Notes under the pieces: generated by a model
Database searches by the model: none
What the model saw: the letters and a program-made list of their open reading frames with translations, nothing else
Told to the model about the DNA's origin: nothing
Program-made: the position numbers and the translations under genes
Shown here: piece after piece, positions 218 to 61,500 of the stretch
How the letters are laid out: the number at the start of each line of letters is the position of its first letter
Numbering within the stretch: the stretch's first letter is position 1
Assembly (NCBI RefSeq): GCF_032854445.1
Contig: NC_088300.1
Span: 11,005,191-11,069,190, forward strand
Length of the DNA: 64,000 nt
Direction of reading: 5' to 3'
Origin: Liolophura sinensis
Lineage: Eukaryota > Mollusca > Polyplacophora > Chitonida > Chitonidae

Positions 218-3200
218 GAAGAAGAGAAAGCTGTCCTGGATGATGAACCGGTTGTGAACCAGGGGCTCGGTGCTGCACTGTCACTAGCCATGAAAAAAGG
301 TCAGTTAGACTTCTGGGTAGCCCCTCCTCACAAAGTTATATAGGCCCTCCTCACACAGTTAGATAGCCATATACACACACATTTAGGCCCTCAACACACA
401 TTTAGACAGCCGCTGCAGGCACAGTTGGATAGACCCTCAACAGGTAGTTAGATAGCCCTCCACATGCAGTTACATACCCTCTCCATATGCAGTTACATAG
501 CCCTTCCACACACAGTTACATAGGCCTTCCACACGCATTTAGATAGCCTCTCCACACACAGTTGCAGATCCCCTCTACACACAGTTAGATAGCCCCTACA
601 CACAGTTAGATAGGCCCTCAACACACAGTTAGATAGCCCCTGCAGGCACAGTGAGATAGCCCCTCAACACGCAGTTAGATAGCCCCTCAACACACAGTTA
701 GATAGCCCCCCCCACATGCAGTTGCATAGCTTCTCCACACAGTTACATAGCACCTCCACACACAGTTGCATAGCCCCTCTCCACACCGTTGCATAACCTC
801 TCCCCACATGGTTGCACAGCCCCTCCCCACACGGTTGCACAGCCCCTCCACAGTTAGATAGCCCCTCTACATGCAGTTAGATAGCCCCTCAACACACAGC
901 TGGATAGCCCTTCCACACATAGTTGCACAGCCCCTCACCACACAGTTGCATAGCCCTCCACATGCAGTTAGATAGCCCCTCCACTTGCAATTAGATAGCC
1001 CCTCAACACACAGTTGGATATCCCCTCCAAACATCGTTGCACAGGCTCTCCACAGTTGTCCACACAGTTGGACAACCCCTCCACACAACAATATTCATGG
1101 TTTGGGAAGAATATGAGTAAATGATTGATCTACCCTAATTTTTCAATATCTTCAACAGCCTTTTCAAACATTCTAAAAGAACTATGGGGAGAAATAATCT
1201 GCATAGTATTGTGAAGCTTGCATCTTTAGTGACAAAATGAAATCATTTTAATATCCTTTTTGTAGTAACTATGCATAAATTACACTAAAAGAAGTGCTTT
1301 AGTGATTGAAAAGGTTGAAGATTTACGGTAAGTCTTTTACACTGTAGTTTCTTTCCATAGTGAAGACATACATGGTGTGCTGATAAGAAATCATTCCCTT
1401 CATGTCTTCTTGCAACTGACATATCACAGCTCTTGTTGTCTGTGTACACAGGTTACTTGGAGCAGGAATTTAAGAAGAAAGGGACAGCTCCGAAGCATGA
1501 ACACATCCAGGCCCAGAATTACTCCATAGAGGACAAGAGATATGAGTAAGATACCATTATTCTCTCTGTTGCCCAACTTCTCCAGTCCTAACAGGTGTTA
1601 ACTCCATTACTGTCAGATTAAAGGAAACAAGGGACACATGAAATGTTTGGTTTTTAGTCTATTGTTACAAAGTAAGGCGCGATATTGTGGGTGTGGGGGA
1701 AAGTGGAGTCGATCTTGGTGTCTGGGCAAGTCATTTTGTTAAAGGATTTTTGTCCAGATTTGTTACTTAATCATAATTAGCTATCCCTGTATATATTGTT
1801 AATTGAGTTTCAAAAAATATTAAAATAGGGTACATTAATCTGAGTAATATGACGCTTGAAATCACTAGATAATGAGGATGGTTTTATGCATTTTTTCTGC
1901 CAACAATCGGTATTATGTCATACAAGATCAACCTTTACGAGCTGTCACAGCCTTGCCATTTAGCCAATTGAATGTTGAAAAAACTACAAGAGTGACAACA
2001 AGCATATCAAATTTCTCTAGGAAATGGGTTGCTGTTCTGCACACAGTCATAAACACAGGTGGTCAAGGACACCTGACATCAGTTTTTTCAAGGCTCCAGA
2101 CGATTTGACCCTCAGGAAGGTATTGATTTACAGTACAAGATGGAAGGATTTTGTGCCCACCAAAAACATCCATGTCAGCTCTTGCCATTTTACAGCTGAA
2201 AGCTACAAGAGGAATATAGCTGAACTCAAACGATTTGGCTACTGTGGCAACAAATCTCTAATGCTGATGTCCACATGTTACATGCATGTATTGCACACAA
2301 CTATATAGACATAGGCTATTGAAAATACTGACGATACCATGCATCTGTCATCGTGCATAGGTATGAATTTAGATGACTGTGGAATAGAACGATGTTTATT
2401 GTGAAGCAGGTGAAATGTTCAATGTAACACAGGATAAAGCTATAACTTACCAGTCCGTATTGCCAGTGTGCATGGAAATGCATGGACAAATGTCACGTTC
2501 AGTGTTTGAAAACGGTGGATCTGAAAGTCTGGCCAGAGATGTCAGTGTAATAAATCAGAAATTTAGTGATGTCCACCGTCGGTTCAAATTGATTTGGCAG
2601 TACATTTCTGATTTGCATCTCTGGAGCTAAGATCTATCCAGGCTAGATATATATATGTGTAGCCTAGTCATCCTTGTGTTGGCCAAATATGACGTGACCC
2701 ACTGAGCCATACCAGGCAGCCAGCTGGAGATGGGCTAGAGCAGTAAATCTGTTGTTTTTTGTGCATTTAAAGTCATTAGTACATTTCACAGAAGCCCTCT
2801 CGGCAATATACTGTTCAATCAGGGTTTAGTCTTTAGAATTAGGAGTGCTAGCAAAATCAGAACACTAATCCTTTAATTTATTTATTTATTTGATGGTGTT
2901 GTACGCGGTACTCAAGAATATTTGACTTATATGACGACAGCCATCATTATGGTGGGAGGAAACTGGGTAGAGCTCGCGGATAACCCACGACCATCCGCAG
3001 GTTGCTGAGAGACCTTCCTAAAACAACCATGTGGGGGGAAGGGCTGAAGTAAGGAGGGCTAAGCTCTTCCTGTGTTCCCAGCAAGTTGACATCATTGACA
3101 GCAATTCTGAAAATTTTCGACTGGAGGTCCTTTTCATGTATTTTAACACTTGATTGGCCAGTTGATTGGCTGATTGATTGGCACCCCTCACCGTTTGAGC

Positions 3201-4773
3201 GGTTTAGTGAGATCCTTCTTAAAGGCTACATTAAGTTTGATCATTGAGGGATTTTTCAGCTGGAGATATTTGAGGTACACATGGCAAGATGAGAAGATTA
3301 CCAGCTGAGCTGATGAGTTGTAACGTGTTTAATACTGTATAATTGTAAACTAGTGACATGGGATGTCTCCTGTCTGTAGGGACCTTGATGAGAAGTATCG
3401 TAAGAGAGATCGCTTCAGCGGAGCTCTGGTGGACTTCAAAGAGAAGGACACGTACAAGCCAGATGTCAAACTGGAGTATGTGGATGACAGTGGTCGCAAC
3501 CTGACCCCCAAGGAAGCCTTCAGACAGCTGTCCCACCGATTTCACGGCAAGGGCTCTGGCAAGAAGAAGACGGAGAAACGGATGAAGAAGCTGGAGGAGG
3601 AGAATGTGAGTAAATCTTGGGTCTGCACACGGGTATTGTTCTCACACAGTCATTTCACATGGCAACGTGTATCCTCACCTCAGCTTAAAATACATAATAC
3701 ATAATGAAGTGCGAAGGAATCATGAGAGATTTGAGTTAGATTGTGTTACAGTAGTGATGCCTTCTGTGATAAAATCTGGCTTCAGAAATGATTTGTATCA
3801 TGGCGGTTCATGTGACATTTGTTAAGAAATAGTGTGAGATTTGGATAGACAATGTAAGTACATGAAAAGGTCTATTATATTGTATTGGATATGTTGCTTT
3901 GTACAGTTCCTGAAGCAGATATTGTACTTGAAATGTTTTTTGATTTTTTGTATAGTTGATAAAGCACAAATTTTACTGAGTATCTTGTTTTGAACAGTTG
4001 ATGAAGCAGATGAGCTCCACAGATACCCCCCTTGGGACCCTCAATTTACTAAAGGAGAAACAGAGAGCTGAGAAATCTGCATATGTCCTCCTAACAGGAA
4101 GCAAGGGAATGGCAGCGTAAGTGTGCTTTGTCAGACTGTGCCAACACTCTGATAGGTCGCCAGTGAGTCATTATGATCACATCGTCCATCAAACAGTGCC
4201 TTGTTCCACAGTAATTTAATGGAAGAAATAGTTAGCACAGGATTGGACACAATGTTCTGTACCAACATTCTGAGAGATTGCAGTCAGTCATTGTGTTCAC
4301 ATTGGACATGATGACATTTTGTGTATGATCACAATTTTTAATACCTTAATTCAGAAAGCCAATTTTAGATTGCTTTTGTTTTATGTAAATTTCCTCTGTA
4401 AACATGACTTAAAATCTTGTGAGGAATGCAATACAGGTAGTATCATCGTGAAAATTCTGCCACCCAGTACTTTTGATACACATTTTTAGAGACAGCAGGT
4501 CTCTTCTGGTCCACAGATAATAGTGTCTGTCCCAGACTACCCGCAGTGTTTGCCACCTGGTTGTACTGGTCGTACTGACATTGTGATGTGCAGCCTAGTC
4601 AACATGATTTTCACAGTGGTTTCTTGTTATCAGTAAGGCATAAGTGCAGCGATTAAGAAATTATATTTAGAATTTATTTTGTTATGTTTAATTTATGCTG
4701 ACATTACAAAAGTATGTCTCTGAGTGAGTGGTTGTTTTGTATTTCCAGGAATACCATCGTCAAAACTAGTTAG
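218..4773 (+). CDS. SART1: SART1 (U4/U6.U5 tri-snRNP-associated protein 1), 3' part of gene
   Basis: SART1 (Snu66 in yeast) is a nuclear protein of the U4/U6.U5 tri-snRNP needed for spliceosome assembly. Five exons join in phase: 218-299, 1452-1545, 3380-3605, 3998-4116, 4749-4773, giving the last 181 residues. Each has GT donor and AG acceptor. The order of motifs matches the vertebrate C-terminus as I recall it: [13 protein letters not shown], then [49 protein letters not shown], a basic [14 protein letters not shown] stretch, [14 protein letters not shown] and a final AANTIVKTS stop. The 5' exons lie left of the window, so the ATG at 3363 is not a start. Intron 1 is almost wholly a minisatellite and intron 2 holds a THAP remnant. 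The exons look intact and under constraint. Identification is confident; exon edges are by consensus only. Confidence 0.93.
300..1095. repeat. ~23-bp minisatellite filling the start of SART1 intron 1
   Basis: About 33 degenerate copies of 'cacagttagatagcccctc' with a spacer of a few bases. Variants have gttgcatagcc or gttacatagcc. The first copy coincides with the splice donor of the preceding exon: the intron starts GTCAGTTAGAC, which reads as an array unit. Antisense ORFs in this stretch come from the repeat and are not genes. Confidence 0.9.
2024..2308 (+). pseudogene. degenerate THAP-type zinc-finger domain in SART1 intron 2
   Basis: An ORF of 94 codons has the order of a THAP domain: a cysteine pair near the start (GCCSAHSH), SFFKAPDD, then [10 protein letters not shown], the HF block and a closing KSLM region. 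In active THAP domains the C2CH zinc site reads Cys-x-x-His with HF following. Here the block is VSSCHF, so the expected cysteine is serine and a cysteine sits next to the histidine, which suggests a decayed zinc site. No downstream transposase ORF is clear, although an ORF at 2415-2630 of unknown nature follows. THAP domains occur in P-element-like transposases and in host regulators; a transposon remnant inside the intron is the simplest reading. Family call is moderately sure; pseudogene status is inferred. Confidence 0.45.
2876..3025 (-). mobile_element. molluscan-type SINE, 3' part
   Basis: Read on the minus strand, this has the order 'aggttgctg', 'cgtgggttat', a block with 'cctcccaccataatg', 'aaatattcttgagtac' and a tail of AATAAATAAAT. 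Full-length copies with tRNA-like heads are at 6690 and 50100. It lies in SART1 intron 2. I recognise the core from mollusc genomes but do not assign a named family. Confidence 0.75.
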
Positions 4774-8167: not shown

Positions 8168-11100
8168 CTACCCCAAGCAGCAGAGGAGTCCCGTGTACTG
8201 TGATTGACAGTCCACCTCGGCTTCCGGGGTCTTGTGGATGGTGCTGAGTCTTTCCTGGTTGGTCATTCCGCACGACTCCGACACGGTACACTGGTAGTTG
8301 ATCTCCGGGGACTCTGGTGGTGTGAGTGGCATCATTCCGGCCAACGCGGCCATGTTGCCAGCGGACGGCATGAACGGGCTCTGCTGGGACATGTTGCCAG
8401 CTGACATGAAGGGGTTCTGTTGCATGGGGTTGGGCGACTGTCCGACAGCGCCGGCCGTGCCGCTCCTAGCCGCCGACTGCGCCTGGAACATGGCCATCTG
8501 GGCCTGCCGTCGTTGCTGCTGCGCTGCCATGTACCTCATGTATTGCTGTTGATACTGTTGGTGAAGTACCTTGCTCGGTCCACACGGCTCTGAGAAAGTC
8601 GTTAAAGAAATTGGACAAAATGGTTTTCTTCCTTTGAACATATTATAAATGCGTCATTTTGACTGGGATAGGTTTTAGTTTTGTACCTTGTCGGAGGCAT
8701 CTTAACGAGAGACATGGAAAGCGGTGACCACCTGAATGTAGGCTATAAAAGTGGGGAAATGCATGGAAAATATATCAGTCTAATACATCGGAATTAGTCG
8801 GTTTAAATATATTTCATATGCTCCGTAATAATGAGACCCTGCATTAAAAATAAGTACATGAAATATTCAATAGCATCAGTACTTACTAAAAACGGACTGG
8901 GGGAGACCATTTCATCGGGGGAACCGGCGGGACCAGTGAAAACATGTATACACATGTACCTACCAGTTTCAAGACTTAAACCATTCCTGTTTTTTTTTTC
9001 TTTTGTTATGTTGATCAAAGCATATGGAGTTGTATTCAGCCGTGTGGTATGTTGTGTTTAAGATTGTCTGTTTCGCAATTCAAAGCTGTGTTAATGCTCT
9101 GTAATCATAGAGAGAAGCCGATTTTTAAAATGATCTACCGTGTATCAAATTAAGTCATTAAATTTTTAATATTTTAATTACTGTATTGTTCTTGCATAGT
9201 TAAATATTAATGTAACTGCTAAGCCAAAGCCCTGTAGTACACGTAAACACCAAAAGGATACGGTCTTGATACCGTCTGAGGAGGGCCATTCCAACCATCT
9301 GTGGTGACATACCATTCGGCATACCCGGGAATGCTGGATTCGTCCCGCCGCTCTGAGAGTTTCTCTGCCGATTGAGTAAAGCCAGGAGAGATGGATTCAT
9401 TCCGTGGAACATGGGATTGGCGTTCGGTGTTTGTCCCTGACGGATCACACCAGCACTGGAATTTGAGTGACCTTGTCCCCCAGAAGACCTCCCTCGTTGT
9501 TGCTGTCCGCGGTTGGGTGGAGGGGTGTTTCCACGGTTCGTCTGTTGGCCATTTAACCGATTACGGGCGGTTCCGAATAGAGGAGGCTGTATTTGAGGCA
9601 CCCTGCTCCGAGACGGAGGGACCCAAGCCCGCTGAATGTTTTGATTCTCTGGTGTCAATCGGACGGGTGGTTTTGGTTTTGCATTCTGTTGATTTAGAGT
9701 ATTTGGGACTTGTGTCTGTACTCTTTGTCCAGCTCCGGTTTGGTTTGGAGGTTTCTGCTCAGCGCCCGTTTGGCTTGAGGGTCTCTGTTCAAAGCCAGTT
9801 TGGCTTGGCGGTCTCTGTCTAGTGCCGATCTGGTTCGGCTGTCTCTGTCCAGCGCCGATCTGGCCTGATTGTTTCTGTCCAGCGCCAGTTGGAGGTCTCC
9901 AAGCCGGTTGAACTCTGCGTGGAGGACCGCCTCCGCTGTTATTTGGTTGATTTGAAGAATTTTCCGCTAAGGGGTTCTGTGATTGACGATTTATTTTATT
10001 CTGGTTTGATGAATTGGCGCCAGAATTTGCCAAAGGCCCGGCCTGGTTTGGTGTCCCGTTAGCATTACGGTTTCTAAATTGGAGAGAGTTCAGCGGAAAT
10101 GGCTGATTTTGCGCCACGTTGTTTCTAAGGGATGTCTGTCCTTCAGCCGCCAGTGGTTGAAACCCCTGCCGATAGTTTGGGAGCGGTGTTTGTTGCCTAT
10201 CTCTAGGCCGCTGAGGAAAGAATTGGTTTGGCCTTGGTTGAGCGGTTCGGTCTAGTCTGGGCACCGGGGTTTGTTGTCTGTTGTTCCAGAAAGGTACGTT
10301 AGGAAGACCGGGTTGAGTTTGGCCAGATCCAGAAGCTCCTTGGGAGTTCGTTCGGAAGCCTAGCCTCTGCCAGATGCTAGGAATGGGGGTCGGGTTAGGC
10401 GTGGGTTCCAGCTCTATCTCTGGGGCCTCGGTGGGCTCTGGAGTTGTGGTCGGAAGATTTAGCACAGGTGGATTGGCTGGTAATGCCGGAAGGAGCATTC
10501 CATTCCTATTTGCGGGTTGATTAGGAAAGAAGCCTGGTTGCTGTGCGGTACCTCTGTTTCCTGCGGCGTCCACTGGCCACGACTGGCCAAACATTGGCCC
10601 ATTACGGTTGTTTGGTGGCAATCCCCCTCCTGGTACAGACGCTCTGAGGGTGTTCGGTCGGAACGTCATACCAGTCGCGCTCTGGCTATTGGGAGAGTTC
10701 GTCTGTCGGCTTGGTGGAATAGGACGTGCGGTCCACGCGGGAGGAATGGCTTGAGCAGACGCACTTTGACTCCCAGGTAAAATGGATTGCTGTTGTGGGA
10801 AAAAGTGAGGAAATTGTTGACCGCCTGGTTGAGGTAGGTTATCCCTGCTTCGTGTAATTGGACCTGGGTTGTTCACAATGGGGTTAACTGGTACACCGCC
10901 CTGTGGAGTATTACCGTTCCCTCCCCCGGCATTATTTCGCTCACCTAACAAGTTAATACCAGGTATGCCGTTTGGGTTTTGAGCACCTACACCGCGGTTA
11001 AGTTCATTTAAGGAAATGGGGTTCGTATTAGAGCTACGTAACTGGTTCCTTCGAGCTTGCTCGTACTGACTTGCAATACGATTGAGGATGAGTTGAATAT

Positions 11101-13045
11101 CCATGCCAGCAGGAAAGCTGTTGGGTATACTGCCGAGCTGAACGGAAGTGCCAGGCGTGTTCATACCTCTGTTATTCTGAGGATATCCGTTTGTATTCAA
11201 CTGTGCCTGATTAGGATTCACTTCTGGATTCATTTGAGGAAAAACTGGTTGAAGTGGATTCACCGCGGATGGCCGTCGGCCTGTGGCACCTGTGTTGAAA
11301 CCAGGGTTTCCTGTTGCTTGATTCCCTGCGTTGTTATTTGCAGCGAAGTTGTTTGGGAAAGATATAACCCGTTGTGGTGGATTCCCTCGACCAGAGTCCG
11401 CTGTGTTTGGCGATGCTGGGTTGAGCCGCTCAGTCGGCCGTGATTGCCGTAAAGTAGGATGGATTTGTCCTTGGCTTGTCGTTGGAACTTGTGGAAACGG
11501 TGCCGCACCAAATCTCTGGTTTCCTGCTCTGTTCAGCGAAGGCTGTTCTGCAGGCCTAGTGGCCTGGTTAGCTGCTTGATTCCAGTTCTGCCCGTCTTGG
11601 ACTGGGCCCGGATTTTGATTGGTTGGTCTACCTCCGTTTCCATAGATTGAGCGCAGTGCACTTGGGCCAGCACGTGAGTCATGCTGATTATTGACCACAT
11701 GAGAAGGCGACTTTTGCTTTGTTGGCTGTGGTTCAACGTTTGGTTGTGGTTGTTGATTTTGGTTAGTTTGCTGGTTACCCGTTGTTGATCCTCTGTCGAC
11801 TGCTACGGAAGGATCCGAGCGAGCATTAGCCTTTCCAGTGTACTCAATCTTGCCTGACACTACAGCATTGGGTCTGTTCCGGATAATAGGTGTATCTACG
11901 GGGGCAGGTGGGGGCTTTACTGGCTGTCTGTCGGTTTGGCTAACTGACCGAGAGGGCGGCTGGTTGTTGTTGATTTTAGAAGAGGGAAGTGTTTGGTGGT
12001 TGGTAGCAGAACTCGTCTGTTGGGGAACAAATACTCGTGCGGCGGGAACAAACCCTGGTCGATTCCTCACAACTGTTGGCGTCTCAGCAACAGTTTGCAC
12101 GGGTGACCTGTTGATAGGGCCTGTGTTACGCCGCAAGGGCCTGCCACTAGGTCCTGCTGGGTTATTCGCTGGTCCATTGGTAGGAGAGTCTGGATTGAAG
12201 AAGATTGAACCAGGGTCAACCCTGGTCGGAGGCTGCGTATTAGGTTTGTTTACTACTCTGGTATTCCCCGTTTCCCGTTGCTGTAATGGTGTCTCAGCAG
12301 GCCGTTGAACACCTATGTTTCTCCAGCCCTGTTGTTGGCCTGTGTTACTAGAGGGTTGATTTCTAGTGTGGGTTCCTTCTTGATGGGCCGTATTTTGTTG
12401 AGCGGTATTTAACGACTGTTGCTGTTGAGCTGAGTTTTGCTGTCCTTGTTGTGAAGGGTTTTCTCCTCTTTTTTGTAGGCCATTTTGTGATGCTTGTTGC
12501 TGTGTCGACTGTTCTTGTTGCGATGTAGCTCGTAACCCTTGCCGATAGTTTCCCACATCTCCTTGTGAGGGCGAGTTGCCAGATGTTCCAGATTTATCTG
12601 ATGTCACGATCCTTTTATTTGAAGCGTCAAGCGGGTCAGGACGTTTACCGTTCTGTATTACAGACGATTGCTGCCAGAACACTGGGATTTTACCCTGGGA
12701 GATATTGGGAGAACCTTGTATTGGATTTTGTCCAGACGCCCAGTCTGTGGACGGACGGGCCACAAAAGCGTCTTTTAACTGCACCGGATTGCCGGTGGGC
12801 CGCGCGATGGAAGAACCAGGCTGATCCACGGCAACTGCGCCCCGGGAATTGCCAGCCCAGCGGACGATGCTGTTAGATGAAGGAAGGACAAGGATCCGGT
12901 TCTTGTACGAGTTAACTCCGGGAGGCGGAGGAATGGCGATTATTACACTGGCCGGGTCATTGCCTTTGGGCCCAGGCGTTTGCAAGCCCTGCCCGTGGCC
13001 CACGGGTGTGAGAACGCAGAAGATGGTAACGATGAGAGCGTTCAT
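8168..13045 (-). CDS. large secreted Q/N/P/G-rich protein, two coding exons
   Basis: Exon A is 9262-13045 (3.8 kb without a stop), exon B 8168-8589; the join is phase 1 at a weak donor (gacc|gtatcc) and a strong acceptor (tttaacgactttctcag). The product would be about 1,400 residues. It begins with a signal peptide, MNALIVTIFCVLTPVGHG, so it should be secreted. The body is low complexity: glutamine-rich near 175-225, many N, P, G and Q stretches, a Thr/Pro/Glu patch near 865-890 (TTTPEPTEAPEIELEPTP), and six decapeptides of type GAGQRQPNQI near 1050-1110. I see no cysteine from the signal to residue 1261; exon B adds a Q/M-rich segment and several cysteines. A 3' splice site at 13050 just before the ATG implies a 5' UTR intron. 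Extracellular or shell matrix is plausible by composition only; I recognise no family. If the join is not used, the ORF reads on to 9200. Confidence 0.7.
9755..9895 (-). repeat. 30-bp coding repeat (decapeptides) in the secreted protein
   Basis: Five to six in-frame units of 30 bases encode G-x-x-Q-[KR]-x-x-x-Q-[IT] decapeptides such as GAGQKQSGQI and GFEQRPSSQT. The period is a multiple of three, so copy number can change without frameshift. Confidence 0.85.
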
Positions 13046-13269
13046 CTCTCTACAAAATCAGACAAAAGTGGACGTCACATAGAGAATAGAATAGGTGCTT
13101 GTCTGTCTTGAAAGTAAAAATTATTAAAAATCATGAACGAATAAAATACAAAGGGTCCATATGTGTATCTTGACCTATGTTAGTGTACAATATGAGAGTA
13201 AGTTATTTCATGACTTGTCAGTATAAGATTACACTAGAGTCTGATAGTGTATATGACGTGTTGTTCCTC

Positions 13270-26390: not shown

Positions 26391-29313
26391 CTATGCTGAC
26401 GGGAACACAATATTGTAGGGAGGCTCGACTTCCGCTTGAGGTCCAAGAGTCACCTGATCCTTACTGGCTCTCTGCCCATATTCTACCCAGGAGCCCTAGG
26501 ATCAGAAATACAAACAATATAACAATGTATGTGTGTGTAATGTTTTACCCAGGAGCCCTAGGATCAGAAATACAAACAATATAACAATGTATGTGTGTGT
26601 AATGTTTTACCCAGGAGCCCTAGGATCAGAAATGCAAACAATATAACAATGTATGTGCGTGTAATGTTCTACCCAGGAGCCCCAGGATCAGAAATACAAA
26701 CAATATAACAATGTATGTGCGTGTAATGTTTTACCCAGGAGATCCCGGATCAGAAATACAAAAAATATAAAAATATCCGTGCGTCCGTAATGTTCTACCC
26801 AAGAGCTGTAGTGTTGGAAATACAAACATTGCAACTGTATCCTTGAGTGTAATGTTCCACCCAGGATGGGAAGGGTTGCAGACACAAACCCCCGAAACTG
26901 AGAAATAAGCACTAAAAAAGTATCCGAGGGTGTTCCCACCTGGTTTCTTAAGACAGAAAAACATATCTAATCATATAATCACCTGTACACATTTATACAT
27001 TTATTGATAAATCAAGTTAAACTTTTTAAAGTTAAACAAATATACATCCGACCCACACTGTTACTTAAAACAATAAAAACTCTCAGATCTTTTAAATCTG
27101 CAATGAAAGTCTATTTATTATGTAGTCCCAACAAAAAAAAAGTTATCTGGCTCCAAAGATGGAATTAAAAGAAGCTCTGTCCCTCTATCGGTTCGGGTTC
27201 GCCATATTGTGAACTTATAACTAGGACCATAGTCCGCCGGCAAAAGTGAAGGCCAATTTCGGGTTCTCCATAACTTCACTAAGTTTCACGTGCTCTAATT
27301 TGAATGTGTAAATACTCACGTAGTATACGGACACTTTAGTGTTCCCACAGAGATATGCTGCCATTGCAACCATGCAGGCGGTGTATCCTACGTAACAGGT
27401 GGTCATCAAAGGTTTAGTAAGGTCTACACTCGCCCACGAGAACACTGTAACACAGAACGCAGGCGGTGTAACCTACGTACTGACAGGTGGTCATCACAGG
27501 TTTAGTGAGGCCAACAACAGCCCATGAGAACACTTTAACACAGAACACAAGAGCTGTACCCTGCGTAATTACAGGTGGTCATCACAGGTTTAGTGAGGTC
27601 TACACCAGTCTATGCAAACACTGTAACGCAAAACACAGGAGCTGTTCCCTGCGTAATTACAAGTGGTCATCACAGATTTAGTGAGGTCTACACCACCCCA
27701 TGAAAACACTGTAACACAGAACACAGGAGCTGTACCCTACATAACACGTGGTCATCACAGGTTTGGTGAGGTCTACACTAGCCCAGGAGAATATTTTAAA
27801 CACAGAACACAGGCGGGGTATACTTCATAACAGGTGGTCATCACAGTTTTAGTGAGGTCAACACTGTACCCTACGTAACGCCCAGGCACACGTCAACATA
27901 GTGTGTGGCATACAGGATTAGCATAGTACGCCACTCAACACAGCTTGCTTGAAGGCTCACGTGGACAAACATTACTGTGTAAATCTAGCATATCATATCC
28001 TCTGAGCTATTCAGTGGTTATGAACTTTGCCTCAATGCAGAACCAGTTCCTGACGGAGAGTTCAACGTTCAAATGGCAAACATGACCGGTTACAGCTATG
28101 AAAAGCATTCTTGCCCAAAACAGGAAAATTTTATTACAATACCAGTCAGCAAGCTACAAACGAATAACTGTAGAAGTTTAGCGTTCCAGGATAGCATAAT
28201 CGGGTGATCTTAGAACAGACTTGATATGGGGATGACTGGTTCCTAGAGTGGAGGTGTACTTACGTTCCCGGAGTTGATTGACAGGTCGGACACTGACTAG
28301 GTCACTTCCGAACATCAAGGGGTAAGGCAGGTTCTTAGCCCCCGGGATTGTCCCTGTTTTGATGTCGGACAACGCGGAAGGATCTAACCCTACTGCTGGC
28401 ATAATCATTTTCAGTACTGCAAAATGAAATGAGAGGAAATCAACAGTGCTGATACAGAATTTTAGGCTTTTTGTTGTTTTTGTTTCTTGACTGGTCATAA
28501 ATAAATAAACTGGATAAATATGTACATCGACCTAATGATCTCACTATGCGACATAAGCCAACATTCGGCCGGTGACAAATTGGCGTGCCAAAAATTCTCA
28601 CAAGCCGTAAAAGATACATGCCAGGTCACCCAGGTTTGCCATTACTACGATATATTGTCCCGTACATCAATATTCCATTATCACTGGTCCCAACATTATT
28701 ATCACTGAAATCGAGATGATGAATTTTTATTTATTCATTCATTTATTTGTTCACTCAGTCATTTATTTTACTGTAAACCAAATTTGTCAAGCTCGTTTTA
28801 TGGCTCCCTAGTACAGAAATAAGTTGGCCAGTTTGATAACGTCTTCGTACCAAAAAAGGCATGAGGTGGTCTGAAGCCTGAAATTGCATTTTCTTAGCGG
28901 TTGCATGTGTTAGGATTTTCCGTTTTTCTACTAGCATTTCTTTTTTCAAATCTGAGGCCTGACTTTGCATTTTCTTAGCGGTTGCATGTGGTAGGATTCT
29001 CTGGTTTTCTACTAGCATTTCTTTTTCCAAATCGTCTCAGATTTTCAACCCTAGCTAAGTGGATAGTTACAAGTAGAGGGCTCCTCTTCTTTGCCCGTAT
29101 AGTTCTCGTGTGGTCGTGTGTCCAAGATCTGCGTATCTCCCTTCGAACGGATTTCCGCTAGTTCGTCGAAAGTAACCATAAGGCTTGGGTCAACCGTTAG
29201 AGAGATGTCCCCTTCCTAGAAGATAACCGTGCAATTGTATTGAGAAGAGAACAATGAAAAGTAGAATTAGGTACCAGGTCTGCATTACTCTAGCCAATAA
29301 CGGATATAATGTT

Positions 29314-29382
<69 letters not shown>

Positions 29383-32300
29383 TGATATTTGAGTTGGTAG
29401 TGCAGGAAGTTAGTGTCACTGATAGCCATAAAATCCGTCTAGACTCATTCCACATCAAACACAAGAAGCCACAAAAATATAATACGGCATAAATCAGTCA
29501 CGGCTGACAACAACCGATGAAAAATAAAACGAAGAAGCATGTAGTAACATAATCATTGAAAGTGGTTAGCGATACAACAGAGCGACATCTATGAGTTGTC
29601 CGCAGATATGCATGCCACAGACCGTAAGCCTGCCCTAAAGGAGAAGAAAACTTAAAAACATGACACAATAGGCTGAAAAGAGCACATTTTTTTCTATCTG
29701 GTGGTGCCTGCTGCATAATTTTGCGACTTTTCCTCGCTATACACGTAAAGCCTGAAAACGGCAAAGCTGGCATAAAGCGCTGAGTTCATCGCGTCCTCCA
29801 TCTTTAACACCGTGTAATTTATACTGGGGGTGTGGAGTCGTTAAAACTGCCGGCTTGTTCGTGTAAACTCCGAACCTACGTCCAACATTCCGGTTTCCCG
29901 ATCGTCAAGTGGAAAACCAACTGTACTGTTCGCTACCTTCTGAGAAGAAGCGTTCTACCGGAAATGTACGAACTGCACTTCGGCGGTTTCCGACGGCAAT
30001 TCTCCTCCTAACACAGAAGACTGCAGGACTTGTTCTTAGGCAAAATGGAGTTGCCCACAGCAGATGTTGGCGCTGACTTTATTTCTAATTTGTCAACTTG
30101 AGGTACACATTAGAATTTTTTATGGCATGCACCTGCGAGGAAATGCATACTCCTTTCAATGGTATTTGATATTTACATTTTCTTCTCCTTTAATCTTCAA
30201 GACCCACAAAGGTTCTTGAAATACAGCAATGATGTGAGAAGAAATGATTTTCGCTCATGTTAAAGTCCTTTAGAATAGTTCTACATAGGCTACATACATG
30301 TAGCATATTGGTCAAGCCCACAAGAAAAATGTGTTTTTGTTTCTTGAGTCAAAAGCCCAAAAATGAAATGGTATCATAATTTTGTGAACAAGTTCACGCA
30401 ACTTGAATAGCTCGAACTGTATGCATACCGCTAAAGACAAATCCCTAATGTGTATGTACCTGAGCGGGCAATTCTTCGGCTGTGACGGGAAATCCTGCGT
30501 CTTGCCATGCCTTCAAGCCTCCGTTTAGAACAGACACCTTCTTGTGACCGAAAGCCTGTAAACAAGTCGGGAAACACTGAAGCACGGAGAGACAACACAA
30601 AAACACAGTGGGAAACACGGAAACACGGAGTGGGAAACAAGGGAAATCAGACTGGGAACCATGGGAACACAGGGTAGGAAACACAGATTTGTACACACGG
30701 AAACAGAGTGGGAAACACGGAAACACAGAGTAAGAAGCAAAGAGTTAGAAACAGAGTGGGAAACAAGAAAACACAGAGTGGGAAACACGGAAAAACTCAG
30801 TGGGAAACAAAGTTGTAAACACGGAAACACAGTGGGAAACACGAGAACAACGAGTGGGTAACACGGACACAGAGAGCGGAAAACAATGAGTTGTGAACAC
30901 GGAGTGCGTAACACAGTGTGTTAAGGAAAGAGTGGGAAACGGGAAAACGAAAGGGTGAAACGCGGAAACACAGAGTGGGGAACAAAAAATGGGGAACAAA
31001 GAGGGGGAAACACGAAAACACACAGTGGGAAGCACGGAAACACAGAGTAGGAAACACGAGAAGACAGTTTATGTCCACTGTTTATGTCCATATTGTTAAC
31101 TATCAAATGGAAAAGGCAGTATAAAGCGTGGGAAGTGGATATATAGGGGAACATTCGTCTTCATTCACGACTGATTGGTAGATGTCATGTCTTGTAACTG
31201 ACAGTTATCTGTTGTTGTTAACTGTTATCCTATTAAATGAAAAGCCTCTCATGTAGTAATCGAAGCATGTGATGTTAGGCCACAGTGTAGCCTACAAATT
31301 GTGCACGGTATAGTCATAACAATTCTGTAAAGAATGGTCATTGCGCTTCTCATCTATTACTCGCTACGTAAGATCTGTGAAGAATGGTCATTGCGCTTCT
31401 CATCTATTACTCTCTGCGTATTATCTGTGAAGAAATGTGATTGCGCTTCTCATCTGTTACTCTCTACGTAAGATCTCTGAAGAAATGTCATTGTGCTTCT
31501 CATCTATTACTCTCTACGTAAGATCTGCGAAGAATGGTCATTGCACTTCTCATATATTACTCTCTACGTAAGATATACCTCATCATGCACATCTGACAGG
31601 GTATAGGTCCCTTAATGATGTGGTAAGTAAATTTCACAGTATTGTCAACGTATTCCTAACTTTGGATATGTTTTAATTATACATGTACATCGTAAAATCA
31701 CGAGGAATATGTTTTTGATTTGTATTTATTATTATGCTTTTACCTTCAGCATCCACCAAAGTCTCGGAGCTGCAAACGGTAAGAGCTTGGCAGTCTCATA
31801 GAGAACCACGTGAGACCCGGCGTTCACTCCCAGGCTCCTCAAGGTCTTCTGGAAGTCTTGTAGGGTGGGAATAGAGGACGGGATGTACGGCATCTGGGCC
31901 GGGCACAATCTCATCAGGTCGATGTACCGAGCGGACGGGATATGACATCTGAAACAGATACGAAAGATGGATTTGAGCCCGAGACCTTCTCGGTGTGACG
32001 AAGAAAAACGCTAACTGATTGAGGCAGCGAGGTCCATCATCTTAGAGGTGTATTAAATCAGTAGACGTTAGGACAGTAAACCTAATGCCTCTTTCGCACT
32101 GTGCGATTCCCAGTTACCACTCGAAAAGGGCAACCACATATGATTTGCTGATTTTGACTAAACATGAATCACAATTCACAATTTATGGAAATATTTACTG
32201 AATTCTGATTCGCCAAATCTGCTACCGTACAGATGGAATGGCTAATCGTCCAGCGGGGAACGGACAAAAACCCCGCGGACATAAGCCCCTCGATCAGTTT

Positions 32301-46560: not shown

Positions 46561-49500
46561 CTATATGTACAGGGTACCATGGTGACCATTCCCATCTCCC
46601 AAGTCCAACTCCAAATCCTGCTCCTGCAAACTAATCTGGTTGATGGAGGCAGTTGCCATGGCAATGTCTGGCATCATCTCATTCAGAATACTGTCACTAC
46701 AGGCACTCGCTTCATTCTACAACAGAAAACATAGAAAAGGTGATTACTGGCAGACAGGTAACATACATGTAGCACAGGTGATTACTGGCAAGCAGGTAAA
46801 TAGCATAGGTGATTACTGGTAGACAGGCAACATAGCACAGGTGACTGTTGACAGACAGGCAAAAAACCACAGGTGATTACTGGCAGACAGGTAACATAGC
46901 ACAGGTGATTACTGGCAGATATGTAACATAGCATACGTGACTACTGACAAACAGGCAACATTGCACAGATAGACAGCTTCAGTCTACAAAAGTAACAGCA
47001 CAGGTGATTACTGGTAGACAGGTAACATAGCACTGGTGATTACTGGCAGACAGGTAACATAGCACAGGTGATTAGTGACAGACAGCTTGAGTTTAGAACA
47101 TGTAACACAGCACAGGTGATTGTTGGCAGACAGCTTCAGTCTACAACGGTAACACAGCACAGGTGATTACTGGCAGGCAGGTAACATAGCACTGATAATT
47201 ACTGGCTCACACACAACATAGCACAGGTGATTACTGGCAGACACCTTAAGATTACAACAGGTAACATAGTACAGCTGATTAAATTATCACTTTTCAGTAA
47301 TTCCTTCAACACCCATGACTGGTAACTAACTGCATCAACAGCATTATCTTGTCAACAAGGGCAATGTGATGATTACGGTTAGGCCACATCAAAGATTTTA
47401 ATATAATAAATCTTGATACCAGGCTGGCTAGGCACAAAGCAATGCTTGGCTCAGTGTCAGCTGTATGTTACTTGTGAGGAGGTAATTACAATATCCCATA
47501 TCTAACATAAATGCACATGCATAATGACAGACAATGTCAAGTCAAAACTGTGAAAGTCTACAGCCACGTTAGTTTCGTGAACTACAAATATGTGAATCTA
47601 AATGTTAAATGTGGCATACCCAAATTTAATAGAAAGCCAAGTTGGTGGAGATTTATTTTATTACTATTCTGCATAGATCAACTAAGCCAGCCTAGCTTCA
47701 ACCACGCTACCTTTCTCATAGACACGACATGCTGACTGCTGAGATGAAAACAATTACTGTGCAGGAAGCAATGGTACAGAGCTGAGGTCTGTTTACTGTT
47801 GCAGATTCTAACATTGGGGTCAAACTCAACTTGCTCATTTTCTCTAATTTTGTGTTAATAATTTTTGTCTGTGTGATAGTCTCATAAATCAAAAAGCATC
47901 AACAATGATGACTGATACAAAATATGAATCAAGTAGATCTTAATGATGACAGAATAAAACAGATGGTGACTTGAGACTTACCTCAACTGGGCTGTAGGAG
48001 TGGGTGGGTGAGATAGGGGTGGAGGAACTATGTTTGACAGGTGATGCTAGACGGCGATGACTCCGTGGGGTGGCAGTTCTGGGATAGTGACGCTCCAGAT
48101 GTACAAACTGCAAGTCCTCTGGGTAGTAAAACTGACCATTCTGCAGAACTTCCACCGTGCTGTCCGGGAGACCAAACTCACGCACGATTCGCAACTGTAG
48201 CTGCAAAGTTATGGCCCTTTTGTCGAGGTAGGGAGTAGAGTAGGCCTTGAGCACCAGGCTACTCTGCTGTAACTCATGTTCTCTCTGGGTCATTAGCAGA
48301 AGCGTGTTTCTGTCTGGAACTGAACAGAAGCATCACTTCAGCATGAGTAAACTGGTACAGAAACTCAACTAGGGTCTGAGATGGTGAAGTACACGGAAAA
48401 CAGGTTTAAAACAAGCAACAACAAATACACATACTCCAGTGTTAGTTATCTAGGAAGGAAGGATTGAAACAGATGCATACATGTATCGTCACAAACAGTT
48501 ATTTCCAATGTGCTTGGCCACTAAGTCATGGGATACGGCATGTCAGAGAAACCAGAAATGTTAGGTTATGTTACTCTTAGCACACATAGCAAAAAGGCAA
48601 CAGAGTGTTCGAATGACGACAGAGGTAACAGGTGCGTTCTTGGGTTATAAACTGGTAACATGGCCATATTTTTGATTTTCTTGAAGATTTTCTTTATTTC
48701 AAACTGCGATATCTTGGTTAGGTAACATCACAAAAATTAAAACTCATGGTTTCAAAACTTTATGTGGGATACTTTACTGATACATATATACATTTGCCTG
48801 CATTGTCTTTTTTAACGTTAATTTTCCAGCAGGACTAACCAACCTGTCCTGAGGCACCAATCAGAAGAATTAAAGGTCACTCTCACTATTATTCTTAATC
48901 AATACTAAAAAAAAAAAGACAAAAAAGAACGGCCACTTTTTTACATTTCCTTAGAACCACCGTTTAACAGATCTGTACTGTACAGACATGACATCAGTAC
49001 GTCGTAACCTGTACTTACCTGGTATTGTCCCAGCGATGATATCTACAGTGGCAGTAGAGGTGCTGATATAGTTCCCCGGTGGGTATGGAGACAAGGGGCA
49101 CTGTCGTTCATCCACCATGTACAGCGTATCTGGGATGGAAGACATGTGGATTGTGCGGATACGAGATGGCTCACTCTCCTGACCCTGGGACAATTGTTCC
49201 TCTAACAATGCCTACAATCACAACAGGGAGAATGGCAACCAAACTCTTTACAGCATCACCAAACTTACTCTGGCCCAGCCATAAAACAGATCTCTCTTTC
49301 TTTTCCCTGTACCAAATACCAACACACCCACTTCTCCCATAAGTGGAATAAATTGCTTCACAATCTTAAAGACTGGTTGTCCGTACCTGCGATTAAAATA
49401 ATCCTCACATTAGCCTATAATTTGTACATTTGTTCTATTCTACTGACAGATGCACACAAATTATAACAGCAAGATAAATGTCATGATTAATGTCCAGGCA

Positions 49501-55500: not shown

Positions 55501-58500
55501 CACTCTGAAGTCTGTGTGGCCACCTAATCACTAAGACCAGAGAAGATCCAGCAAGATTCAGTCAGATAATGTCTGAACTGAAGTTGACCAGACTACACCC
55601 TTTTAAATCTGACTTTCTCTGAGCTGAGGCACACATATATGTACAGGTAGGCCAGGCTAGATGAAGCACTCACCATACAAATGTACAGGTACATGTTTGT
55701 CATGTTAATTTCATGCCACCTTCCTGATTTACCTTTAGTTTGCCCTGACTCCATGTAAATGTATCTACCCCCATAACCCCTCAACTTGCTCCTGCATGCC
55801 ACAAACATTCATGTCAAACAAGAATGCACGTAAATCACATGTCTTTACACATTCAAGTATTCATTCATAATGAAACCCAACTATTGATCTGATCTGATGT
55901 GATTATGTTCAACAGATTTATACTCAACAATTTCTCAGGTATATGTACATGTATATAATATAATAAAAAGTTATGTGCTTTGAGGTAACGGTCATTGACC
56001 CCTGACAAGTTATTGGCAAACTTTCCCGCATGTGACATACATGTACATCATACTGGTGGAATAAGGTATATGTAGGCACCATGTGATCTTACCTGGAGAA
56101 AGTCTGAGCGTAATGCCTGTATTAAGTACTCTTTGCTGAGGTCGAAGAGTATCGGTGAGTGAGCGATCTGCAGGAACTCCTCACGCAGGAAGTGGATAGC
56201 CTGGCGGTGCACCCACTTGGAGCCATGAGCCTCCGAACTCCAGCCCAGTATGGACGTCAGGTTTTCCAGATTAATACTGTCAGAGATAATATCTTCACAA
56301 CCTACAACATGTACACAATCCTTAATACTGTCAGATATAATATCTTCACAATCTAAAACATACACACACACACACACACACGCACAATCCCTATGCTGTC
56401 AGATATAATATCCTCACAACCTAAAACACACACACAATCCCAATGCTGTCAGATATAATATCTTTACAATCTAAAACACACACACACACGCACACACACA
56501 AATGCACAATCCCAATGCTGTCATATATAATATCCTCACAACCCAAAACACACACACAAAATCCCAATGCTGTCAGATGTAATATCTTCACAATCTAAAA
56601 CACACACACACAAACACCCACACACAATCCCAATACTGTCAGATATAATATCTTCACAATCTACAACACACACACAATCCCAATGCTGTCAGATATAATA
56701 TCTTCACAATCTAAAACACACACACACACACAAAACACAATGCTGTTAGATGTAATATCTTCACAATCTAAAACACACACACACACAATCCCAATGCTGT
56801 CAGATATAATATCTTCACAATCTAAAACACACACACACACAATCCCTATGCTGTCAGATGTAATATCTTCACAATCTAAAAACACACACACACACAATCC
56901 CAATGCTGTCAGATATAATATCTTCACAATCTAAAACACACACACACACAATCCCAAAGCTGTCAGATGTAATATCTTCACAATCTAAAACACACACACA
57001 CACAATCACAATGCTGTCAGATATAATGTCTTCATGATCTAAAATGCACACACACACACACAATCCCAATGCTGCCAGATATAATATCTTCACAATCTAA
57101 AATGCACACACACACACACAATCACAATGCTGTTAGATGTAATATCTTCACAATCTAAATCACACACACAATCCCAATGCTGTCAGATATAATATCTTCA
57201 CAATCTAAATCACACACACAATCCCAATGCTATCAGATATAATATCTTCACATTCTAAATCACACACACAGTCTCAATGCTGTCAGATATAATATCTTCA
57301 CAATCTAAAATACACACACACAATCACAATGCTGTCAGATATAATATCTTCACATTCTAAATCACACACACAATCTCAATGCTGTCAGATATAATATCTT
57401 CACAATCTAAAATGCACACACACACACACAATCCCAATGCTGTCAGATATAATATCTTCACAATCTAAAATGCACACACAATCTCAATGCTGTCAGATAT
57501 AATACCTTCACTACCTAAAATGCACAAACACACTCACAATCCCAATGCTGTCAGATATAATATCTTCACAATCTAAAATGCACACACACACACACACACA
57601 ATCCCAATGCTGTCAGATATAATATCCTCACATTCTAAATCACACACACAATCTCAATGCTGTCAGATATAATATCTTCACAATCTAAAACACACACACA
57701 CACAATCCCTATGCTGTCAGATGTAATATCTTCACAATCTAAAAACACACACACACAATCCCAATGCTGTCAGATATAATATCTTCACAATCTAAAACAC
57801 ACACACACACAATCCCAAAGCTGTCAGATGTAATATCTTCACAATCTAAAACACACACACACACAATCACAATGCTGTCAGATATAATGTCTTCATGATC
57901 TAAAATGCACACACACACACACAATCCCAATGCTGCCAGATATAATATCTTCACAATCTAAAATGCACACACACACACACAATCACAATGCTGTTAGATG
58001 TAATATCTTCACAATCTAAATCACACACACAATCCCAATGCTGTCAGATATAATATCTTCACAATCTAAATCACACACACAATCCCAATGCTATCAGATA
58101 TAATATCTTCACATTCTAAATCACACACACAGTCTCAATGCTGTCAGATATAATATCTTCACAATCTAAAATACACACACACACACACAATCACAATGCT
58201 GTCAGATATAATATCTTCACATTCTAAATCACACACACAATCTCAATGCTGTCAGATATAATATCTTCACAATCTAAAATGCACACACACACACACAATC
58301 CCAATGCTGTCAGATATAATATCTTCACAATCTAAAATGCACATACAATCTCAATGCTGTCAGATATAATACCTTCACTACCTAAAATGCACAAACACAC
58401 TCACAATCCCAATGCTGTCAGATATAATATCTTCACAATCTAAAATGCACACACACACACACACACAATCCCAATGCTGTCAGATATAATATCCTCACAT

Positions 58501-61500
58501 TCTAAATCACACACACAATCTCAATGCTGTCAGATATAATATCTTCACAATCTAAAACACACACACACACAATCCCTATGCTGTCAGATGTAATATCTTC
58601 ACAATCTAAAAACACACACACACACAATCCCAATGCTGTCAGATATAATATCTTCACAATCTAAAACACACACACACACAATCCCAAAGCTGTCAGATGT
58701 AATATCTTCACAATCTAAAACACACACACACACAATCACAATGCTGTCAGATATAATGTCTTCATGATCTAAAATGCACACACACACACACAATCCCAAT
58801 GCTGCCAGATATAATATCTTCACAATCTAAAATGCACACACACACACACAATCACAATGCTGTTAGATGTAATATCTTCACAATCTAAAACACACACACA
58901 ATCCCAATGCTGTCAGATATAATATCTTCACAATCTAAATCACACACACAATCCCAATGCTATCAGATATAATATCTTCACATTCTAAATCACACACACA
59001 ATCTCAATGCTGTCAGATATAATATCTTCACAATCTAAAATGCACACACACACACACAATCCCAATGCTGTCAGATATAATATCTTCACATTCTAAATCA
59101 CACACACAATCTCAATGCTGTCAGATATAATATCTTCACAATCTAAAATGCACACACACACACACAATCCCAATGCTGTCAGATATAATATCTTCACAAT
59201 CTAAAATGCACACACAATCTCAATGCTGTCAGATATAATACCTTCACTACCTAAAATGCACAAACACACTCACAATCCCAATGCTGTCAGATATAATATC
59301 TTCACAATCTAAAATGCACACACACACACACAATCCCAATGCTGTCAGATATAATATCCTCACATTCTAAATCACACACACAATCTCAATGCTGTCAGAT
59401 ATAATATCTTCACAATCTAAAATGCACAAACACACTCACAATCCCAATGCTGTCAGATATAATATCTTCACATTCTAAATCACACACACAATCCCAATGC
59501 TGTCAGATATAATATCTTCACAATCTAAAATGCACACACACACACACAATCCCAATGCTGTCAGATATAATATCTTCACATTCTAAAACACACACACAAT
59601 CTCAATGCTGTCAGATATAATACCTTCACAACCTAAAACGCACAAACACACATAATCCCCAATACAATAATATATTTTTATGGCAGTACAGTGATCCTCG
59701 CAATTTCAGCACAGGAGTACTGGCTTATATCATACATGTAGGAGCACTGGCTACTCCGAGAAAGCCATTTATCAAGAACAATATACAAGTAAGGATCGTC
59801 AGTGTCCTTGTGTTCATCCTTACACTTTAATTTCATTTATTTCACTAAAACATAAAATTAACAGGGTTAATGTGTGTACAATACACTGTGCATTTAAATT
59901 AAAATGTTTAAATTATGTTAAATTAAATGTAAATTAAGTTGCAGTGAAATATTTGGCAGGACTAAAACCCTAATTGGCTTGCATTACCCCATAAACTGAT
60001 ACTATTTTTATATTATTTATCAAGGAGATCAGTAAAGAGAATTCCCCTTGAACATGAAAAGGTGAAGGTAAAACTAAAATCATCCACATATTAACCACAA
60101 GTTTAAGAGGTATAGGAGGAAATATAACAAGTACAGTGTATAACACGTTTTTGATCATGGATATTTCTATAGTTGACACAGTGATGTGTAATATTTTCTT
60201 TCCAGGCATAGATGTATTAGGTGCAGGTACAAACTATACCTGGAGCACTGATGTAGGTATTATGAACTCACATGTGCCATTTAACAACATTTCACTTCAA
60301 CTAAATTTGAACCAAATAACATTTTGTAGGTTTTGCACTTTCAAACTGATTGACCAGCTGTTAATGAATCCACTGAAATGTGATGTATACAAATTTTCAA
60401 TTGGCCCTAAACATGCATGTAGTTACCTACAGTGCATGTAGTAACTTATGTTTTCCTACTTCTAAGAATATATCTTACCTATATATATAAAACACATGAA
60501 TGCAAAACTTCTCTAGTGACGTTACACTGGTGTCTTAAAAGCAGGCCAAAACAATATGAATAAAAATCTGAGTTGCTTTCCTGAATTGTAAAGAAACTGC
60601 TGGGTATTAAAACTGATATACACAAATACCTAGAGGTGGAGGCAGAGTGATATGTATAGGAAGAGAGGCTTACCTTGAGACAAAACAGGAAAGTCCAGAA
60701 ACTGACCGATCTGGTAAATCTCCATGGCTTCATCAGCATGAGTCATATGGCCTTTACCGGCTACCATAGCTTGCACTTCACTTAAGCTGCACATACTGGT
60801 GCTGCCACGCACAATGCAGCTGAGGTCTATGGAGTCCAAGTAGACAGCATGCAACAGAACACGTGCATACTGCCGTGGAATGACGGACTCGTCTAACACT
60901 ATACGCGTGGGAGCCTGCAACGTCCGTTCTGTGATCTCCTCTCCCGACCTGGCCCTTCGCAGGAGCAAGTTCCTGAAGAAAGGGGAGCGCGCAGCCAGCA
61001 CGGCCTTGTGGCAGCACAGCTCCTGTTTGGTGGAGTGGAAGGAGCCAGCCATGTCACACTGACTATCATGGAGGTCACAGTCTGAGGTAAACACCAACAC
61101 TGCATCACAGTAGTCCCCAGTCTCTAACAGAGTCCTCAAGTCCTGCTCCAGTGGGCTGGGCATGCCAAACTCGTCCACCAGTCTGGACAGCACTTCCACT
61201 TGAGCCAGTCGTTGTACCGTCGGTACAGAGATCGTCGGTGTACAGATAGCGCAAAAGTGCTGCAAACATGGCAACGTCCACACCTGGCGTTTTCACTTTG
61301 ATTGGAACCTGTGCCCCGTATTCGGGATACTTAGCTAAGATTTCTCTGAAGAATGGGCAGCGCACGGAGAGAAGGGCACGATGTGAGGGGAAGCAGGCCC
61401 CATGGTAGATCAGGTCCACATCTGTACAGTACTTGTAGTCAAACAGCGTTGACAGGTCCCTCCTGAGGCTGCGGGCTGGAGGCCGGGCCAGGTTGGCCGC

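What the first reader, a model, noticed from the sequence alone, without database searches (positions are those of the whole stretch)
27320..27885. Tandem copies of the sulfurtransferase active-site segment
The array upstream of exon 6 repeats LTKPVMTTC with the nucleophilic cysteine about five times beside the real exon, each behind its own acceptor-like gttctgtgttacag. Some units are open through the loop and differ in it (CYVGYSS, CNYAG, CQYVGYT). This could be a set of mutually exclusive mini-exons that vary the catalytic loop, or simply decayed copies.
Basis: partly seen in the sequence, partly recalled or inferred. Interest (0 to 1): 0.8.

Follow-up and report, generated by a model that had tools for sequence, protein, structure and literature searches.

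The report
Duplicated splice-acceptor array in chiton gene
In a chiton gene for a sulfur-transfer enzyme, the end of an intron and the start of the next exon have been copied in tandem, giving decoy splice sites rather than working spare exons, and the same layout is seen in neighbouring genes.

Summary
The array is real. Upstream of exon 6 of a thiosulfate-sulfurtransferase-like gene of the chiton Liolophura sinensis (minus strand) lie five partial copies of the 3' end of intron 5 plus about the first 70 of the exon's 125 nt, at an 88-bp period. They are unlikely to be mutually exclusive catalytic-loop exons. No unit carries the last ~54 nt of the exon; 2 of 5 upstream units keep the TTACAG acceptor; one has an in-frame stop; read-through from each of the four unit starts tested meets stops; no unit ends in a convincing donor. 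The only L. sinensis model found uses the last acceptor.

The better description is a 'mirage', the amphioxus name for minisatellites that duplicate an intron-exon boundary. Exon 7 of the same gene, BTBD7 exon 2 (61 upstream copies, 60 with AG intact), a SART1 exon and, weakly, BTBD7 exon 7 show the same layout. Gapped junction copies beat all shuffles at 4 of 16 acceptors and 0 of 16 donors (one-sided p about 0.05), but against random intron points acceptors are not enriched. In my searches mirages appeared only in amphioxus papers. Transcripts and a genome-wide count are missing.

The parts
27320..27444 (-). Exon 6 of thiosulfate sulfurtransferase-like gene (authentic; ends with donor TAC|gtgagt)
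   Evidence: Matches P0001, NCBI model of Liolophura sinensis
27393..27864 (-). 88-bp tandem array: end of intron 5 plus about the first 70 nt of exon 6, five upstream partial copies plus the exon
   Evidence: TRF; unit cut; junction copies
27794..27879 (-). Outermost unit u0, rearranged 5' end, no acceptor in the usual place
27709..27793 (-). Unit u1 (CYVGYSS), acceptor AG lost (tttaaaa)
27621..27708 (-). Unit u2 (CNYAGNSS), intact TTACAG acceptor, 3-nt insertion in loop
27533..27620 (-). Unit u3 (CNYAGYSS), intact TTACAG acceptor, in-frame stop TAG, 3-nt insertion in loop
27445..27532 (-). Unit u4 (CQYVGYTA), acceptor TTAAAG; 3-nt insertion in loop; holds the best non-authentic donor (last exon base 27477, score 4.9)
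28264..28416 (-). Exon 5
26391..26495 (-). Exon 7 (GSWVEYG...)
26484..26828 (-). Second boundary-spanning array in the same gene: 62-bp units with the exon-7 acceptor and its first ~12-15 nt
56271..59652 (-). Boundary-spanning array at BTBD7-like exon 2: 61 upstream junction copies, 60 with AG intact
46728..47280 (-). Array upstream of BTBD7-like exon 7 with two copies of ttgtag|ACTGAAGC; weak case (fails the gapped test)
3900..4116 (+). SART1-like exon (about 3998-4116) with degenerate junction copies about 91 and, seen by eye, about 42 nt upstream of its acceptor

Best explanation
The array is a mirage-type minisatellite. [quoted passage not shown] The copies lie on the intron side; only the innermost is joined to the rest of the exon and its donor. 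Shown: the structure and its direction, its relation to a conserved coding exon, the decay of units, and the same layout at further acceptors in three genes. Inferred: the copies arise by slippage or unequal exchange; splicing normally uses the innermost acceptor because only it is followed by a complete exon and donor (exon definition); the upstream copies are removed with the intron, with at most occasional use as alternative 3' splice sites.
For: 88-bp array joined to the exon. The exon is taken as ancestral because it aligns with solved rhodaneses over VDLTKPL..TC..G.TAC and is in the species' own gene model. Units lack the exon's last ~54 nt; acceptor lost, altered or absent in 3 of 5 units, a stop in one, spacings 86, 85, 88, 88, 88. 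No convincing donor. Same layout at exon 7, BTBD7 exon 2 and a SART1 exon: 4 of 16 acceptors exceed all 100 shuffles, 0 of 16 donors do. Copies of the last 30 intron nt at 4 of 16 acceptors, of the first 30 intron nt at 0 of 16 donors; exon-first-30 copies at 2 of 16, exon-last-30 at 0 of 16. Amphioxus mirages have the same anatomy and, by the authors' RT-PCR, do not disturb regular splicing (PMC3087553, section read).
Against: Unit u1 differs from the exon by 9 synonymous and 3 non-synonymous changes, more constrained than a neutral copy should look; I read this as the exon's own silent changes recorded in successive copies, which is untested. Arrays are so common here that 467 of 1500 random intron points also have copies, against 3 of 12 acceptors in the same test, so acceptors are not enriched over intron background. 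The exon-side contrast alone (2 of 16 against 0 of 16) is not significant (p 0.24). No transcript was seen.
Confidence: 0.86

Rival explanations
1. Mutually exclusive mini-exons that swap variants of the catalytic loop.
For: Loop variants exist and several units are open through the loop; pN/pS between u1 and the exon is low (0.05/0.55), and third positions are in excess with the exon included (18 of 36, p 0.03). One phase-compatible 56-nt mini-exon (27532-27477) can be drawn using the GT scoring 4.9.
Against: No unit carries the exon's last ~54 nt; that 56-nt mini-exon would cut the loop two residues after the Cys and drop 23 residues. Acceptor lost, altered or absent in 3 of 5 units; u2-u3, u2-u4 and u3-u4 lie nearer to neutral (pN/pS 0.10/0.11, 0.18/0.28, 0.18/0.28). 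No such isoform was listed (109 rows).
Confidence: 0.04
2. Alternative 3' splice sites: the upstream acceptors are used at a regulated level, giving truncated or altered products (a premature stop at exon 6, an altered C-terminus at exon 7).
For: At exon 7 the nearest upstream acceptor is identical to the authentic one over the 45 intron nt shown and the next nearly so; both would give GSWVKHYTHIHCYIVCISDPRAPG* in the last exon. At BTBD7 exon 2 the nearest upstream acceptor adds 17 residues in frame. Decoys score close to the true site.
Against: NCBI models of both genes use the last acceptor. Of 61 BTBD7 copies 13 are in frame and only one is open. Amphioxus mirages were reported not to interfere with regular splicing.
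Confidence: 0.08
3. Chance placement: introns of this genome are full of minisatellites and a few happen to overlap exon starts, with no special link to acceptors. (This concerns why the arrays sit there, not what they are, so its odds do not compete with the best explanation.)
For: 467 of 1500 random intron points have copies; other arrays lie inside introns, and one starts about 18 nt after a SART1 donor. The 4-of-16 against 0-of-16 contrast has p about 0.05.
Against: The units of four arrays carry the acceptor together with exon sequence, with copies on the intron side; interior exon 30-mers have copies in 0 of 50 and exon ends at donors in 0 of 16, though 9 of 229 interior points had copies in the earlier 40-nt test.
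Confidence: 0.35

Closest known systems
Mirages: minisatellite-like duplications of intron-exon boundaries in amphioxus (globin BflGb6 and BflGb9, Adh3, troponin C, PGBD5)
   Same: BflGb6 units join the 3' end of an intron to the 5' part of the next exon; many but not all units keep splice signals; units 81-100% identical there, 80-89% among u1-u4 and the exon here (PMC3087553 section read; PMC3902484 passage read).
   Different: Mollusc rather than cephalochordate; up to 61 upstream copies at one exon; acceptor-side cases only among the 32 junctions tested, while amphioxus BflGb9 has a donor-side case. Length polymorphism and regular splicing are reported there, not tested here.
Mutually exclusive tandem exons (type recalled from general knowledge, no call)
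   Same: Several similar exon-like units in a row.
   Different: Units here are partial exons without convincing donors and with decayed acceptors.
Intron gain by internal tandem duplication (Gao and Lynch 2009; Zhuo et al. 2007; titles seen in a reference list, and their use cited in PMC3087553)
   Same: Tandem duplication that copies splice signals inside a gene.
   Different: No new intron position is seen here; an existing intron is longer.

Membership tests
Mirage (boundary-spanning minisatellite) | Tandem units that span an intron-exon boundary | tested here: met
Mirage (boundary-spanning minisatellite) | Units derive from an authentic exon boundary of the same gene | tested here: met
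   Exon 6 is in P0001 and alignable to rhodaneses
Mirage (boundary-spanning minisatellite) | Many but not all units keep splice signals | tested here: met
   AG kept in 3 of 5 units at exon 6 (TTACAG in 2), 60 of 61 at BTBD7 exon 2
Mirage (boundary-spanning minisatellite) | Regular splicing is not disturbed | not testable with these tools
   Only gene models, which use the last acceptor
Mirage (boundary-spanning minisatellite) | Length polymorphism between haplotypes | not testable with these tools
   One assembly; no reads or second haplotype available
Mutually exclusive exons | Each unit is a complete exon with acceptor and donor | tested here: not met
   Units lack the last ~54 nt; no convincing donor; acceptor lost, altered or absent in 3 of 5
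Mutually exclusive exons | Alternative transcripts each with one unit | tested here: inconclusive
   One protein model only; no RNA data
Rhodanese / sulfurtransferase (host gene) | Two rhodanese domains with a catalytic Cys loop CxxGx[TS]A in the second | tested here: met
   PF00581, 2 stretches; loop CYVGYTA

The most novel reading that the evidence does not exclude
In chitons, introns grow from their 3' ends by repeated tandem duplication of the acceptor together with the start of the exon. Such mirages are a leading source of intron length genome-wide, and the spliceosome routinely passes dozens of near-identical decoy acceptors (60 with intact AG in BTBD7 intron 1) to use the innermost. 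This would be a natural test of how a 3' splice site is chosen, and the arrays would hold frozen copies of earlier exon states.
Probability: 0.35. Interest if true: 0.68.

Novelty: new member of a known kind. Interest (0 to 1): 0.45.

Why it matters
If arrays of this kind are as common as this one window suggests, the phenomenon is not an amphioxus oddity but occurs in a distant phylum. BTBD7 intron 1 would be a strong natural experiment on splice-site choice: tens of near-identical acceptors, one of them correct. It also warns annotators that exon-like units next to real exons need not be exons.

Tried and rejected
Mutually exclusive mini-exons: rejected on anatomy (see rivals). Recursive-splicing ratchet points: considered and rejected, because 55 of 61 BTBD7 copies have A, not G, after the AG position, and the exon-6 and exon-7 units that keep the AG read AG|TG and AG|GG.

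Selection on units: I counted changes by codon position for u1-u4 and the exon, leaving out u0 because its 5' end is rearranged (a first count with a slightly different alignment gave 9, 8 and 15 for positions 1, 2 and 3). The result is ambiguous and is strongest for u1, which has lost its acceptor.

Enrichment: a first ungapped test gave 3 of 12 acceptors and 1 of 12 donors (the donor at the threshold, 26/40, 1549 nt away), with 9 of 229 exon-interior points and 467 of 1500 random intron points. So against intron background acceptors are not enriched. The gapped test on 16+16 junctions gave 4 against 0; BTBD7 exon 7 failed it (29 against a shuffle maximum of 35) but has copies of its last 30 intron nt. 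Array cover of the last 200 nt is 0.78 or more in 5 of 12 introns, of the first 200 nt in 1 of 12 (SART1 introns not in that count). Splice-site matrices were trained on 12 donors and 12 or 16 acceptors of this window only, so they are crude. Scores of array sites use a matrix that includes the authentic site; leave-one-out, the exon-6 donor scores 4.4, no better than the 4.9 of the GT in u4.

Literature: (61 found no paper). Mirages appeared only in two amphioxus papers. Passages of PMC3862624, PMC12005716 and PMC11545220 were looked at and gave nothing on the question. Canestro 2002 is not held; what I say of Adh3 comes from PMC3087553 and PMC3902484.

Full report
Identity of the locus. The search with the joined exon translation returned P0001, 'thiosulfate sulfurtransferase-like [Liolophura sinensis]', 100% identical over 86% of the query; the next row is 35% identical. 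L. sinensis is a chiton. Mapped back by tblastn, P0001 has seven exons on the minus strand between 35132 and 26391, with exon 6 at 27444..27320 and exon 7 at 26495..26391. Exon 6 is a conserved piece of the C-terminal rhodanese domain: VDLTKPLMTTCYVGYTAC aligns with VDLTKPLIATCRKGVTAC of a solved rhodanese, 1dp2. I therefore take the exon as the ancestor and the array as the derivative.

Anatomy of the array. The 88-bp array at 27393-27864 consists of five upstream partial copies and the exon itself, with exon-equivalent starts at about 27879, 27793, 27708, 27620, 27532 and 27444. A complete unit is about 14-16 nt of intron end (..gttctgtgttacag) followed by about 70 nt of exon start, 3 nt longer in u2-u4; where the exon goes on with MVAMAAYLCG, the unit goes back to the intron end. 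u1-u4 are 80-87% identical to the exon's junction region, the outermost unit 71%. Acceptors: TTACAG intact in u2 and u3, TTAAAG in u4, lost in u1, no acceptor in the usual place in u0. u3 has an in-frame TAG. u2-u4 share the position of a 3-nt insertion that would lengthen the loop by one residue; none of the 109 proteins matched the one narrow pattern I tried for such a loop.

Why they are not alternative exons. A replacement exon needs a donor and the rest of the domain. No unit has the exon's last ~54 nt. The best GT in the scanned stretch other than the real donor scores 4.9 and lies inside the loop of u4; the others score 3.2 or less. The 12 authentic donors score 0.9-12.1 leave-one-out, so the weakest overlap with it. 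Read through from each of the four upstream unit starts u1-u4, the frame hits stops. Unit spacings are 86, 85, 88, 88 and 88. One search listed no second L. sinensis isoform among 109 rows.

Selection. Among u1-u4, 13 of 27 minority states are at third codon positions (p 0.087); with the exon 18 of 36 (p 0.03). Pairs u2-u3, u2-u4 and u3-u4 lie nearer to neutral, while u1 differs from the exon by 9 synonymous and 3 non-synonymous changes. Since u1 has lost its acceptor, present use as an exon is unlikely. Successive copying from an exon that itself changes mostly silently would give the same pattern; this is inference.

The same layout elsewhere in the window. (a) Exon 7 of the same gene begins inside a 62-bp array (26484-26828) whose units carry tttctgatcctag|GGCTCCTGGGTA; two upstream copies have an intact acceptor, in the outer ones it is lost or shifted. 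(b) A BTBD7-like gene (P0110, 'LOW QUALITY PROTEIN', same species) lies at 61815-46564 minus. Its exon 2 (56301..56093) is preceded by 61 copies of the junction over 3.3 kb; 60 have AG directly before the exon-equivalent start; mean identity 0.90 among copies and 0.84 to the true junction. Arrays make up 0.77 of the 4.4-kb intron 1. (c) A SART1-like gene (PF03343, E 3e-40) on the plus strand has an exon at about 3998 with a degenerate junction copy 91 nt upstream (score 37, shuffle maximum 30) and, by eye, another about 42 nt upstream. (d) BTBD7 exon 7 has array copies of ttgtag|ACTGAAGC upstream, a weak case. In gapped alignments 4 of 16 acceptors beat all 100 shuffles and 0 of 16 donors did (Fisher one-sided 0.05).

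Limits. Minisatellites are dense in these introns: 467 of 1500 random intron points have copies, and one array starts about 18 nt after a SART1 donor. Taking exon sequence alone, copies exist for 2 of 16 exon starts and 0 of 16 exon ends (p 0.24). The acceptor bias is therefore suggestive only. Leave-one-out acceptor scores rank the true site near the top of each array (upstream AGs at least as good: exon 6, 1 of 19; exon 7, 1 of 6, with a second equal after rounding; BTBD7 exon 2, 2 of 207; BTBD7 exon 7, 2 of 24), but the matrix is small.

Comparison. [quoted passage not shown] PMC3902484, passage read). Regular splicing and instability could not be tested here. In some searches I found mirages described only in amphioxus; the library holds open-licence papers only.

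Mechanism. Shown: duplication of the boundary, decay of units, innermost copy complete, same pattern in three genes. Inferred: slippage or unequal exchange at the low-complexity intron end as the source; choice of the innermost acceptor because only it faces a complete exon and donor; occasional use of decoys. The nearest BTBD7 decoy would add 17 residues in frame, and the two intact exon-7 decoys would change the C-terminus within the last exon; these are the best places to look for leaked isoforms.

Noticed in passing
35176-35038 (-): The conserved rhodanese N-terminus (ALVTAQWLHEQL..LDTTF) is in another frame than the rest; the NCBI model starts at an ATG in the other frame (MASRTTNQQ..). 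Either a sequence error or a real lesion of the gene.
   Followed up: partly
near 61221 (-): BTBD7-like exon 1 also carries a 1-nt frame break; the NCBI model is labelled LOW QUALITY PROTEIN. Two such breaks in one window may point to sequence errors.
   Followed up: partly
27320-27444 (-): The active-site loop of the real exon is CYVGYTA. Of 109 proteins, 90 matched CxxGx[TS]A; P0001 alone has YVGYTA, 51 have GSGVTA, 19 did not match the pattern. Substrate preference may differ.
   Followed up: partly
318-1054 (+): 23/46-bp array starting about 18 nt after a SART1 donor: a donor-adjacent array.
   Followed up: no
30599-31067 and 31324-31574: Further arrays in an intron of the sulfurtransferase gene; the first ends about 44 nt from the exon-3 acceptor and is pyrimidine-rich on the coding strand, the second has acceptor-like ttcttcacag in some units.
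   Followed up: partly
9203-13057 (-): Uninterrupted 1285-residue frame rich in N, Q and P, with a hydrophobic start by eye; not identified.
   Followed up: no
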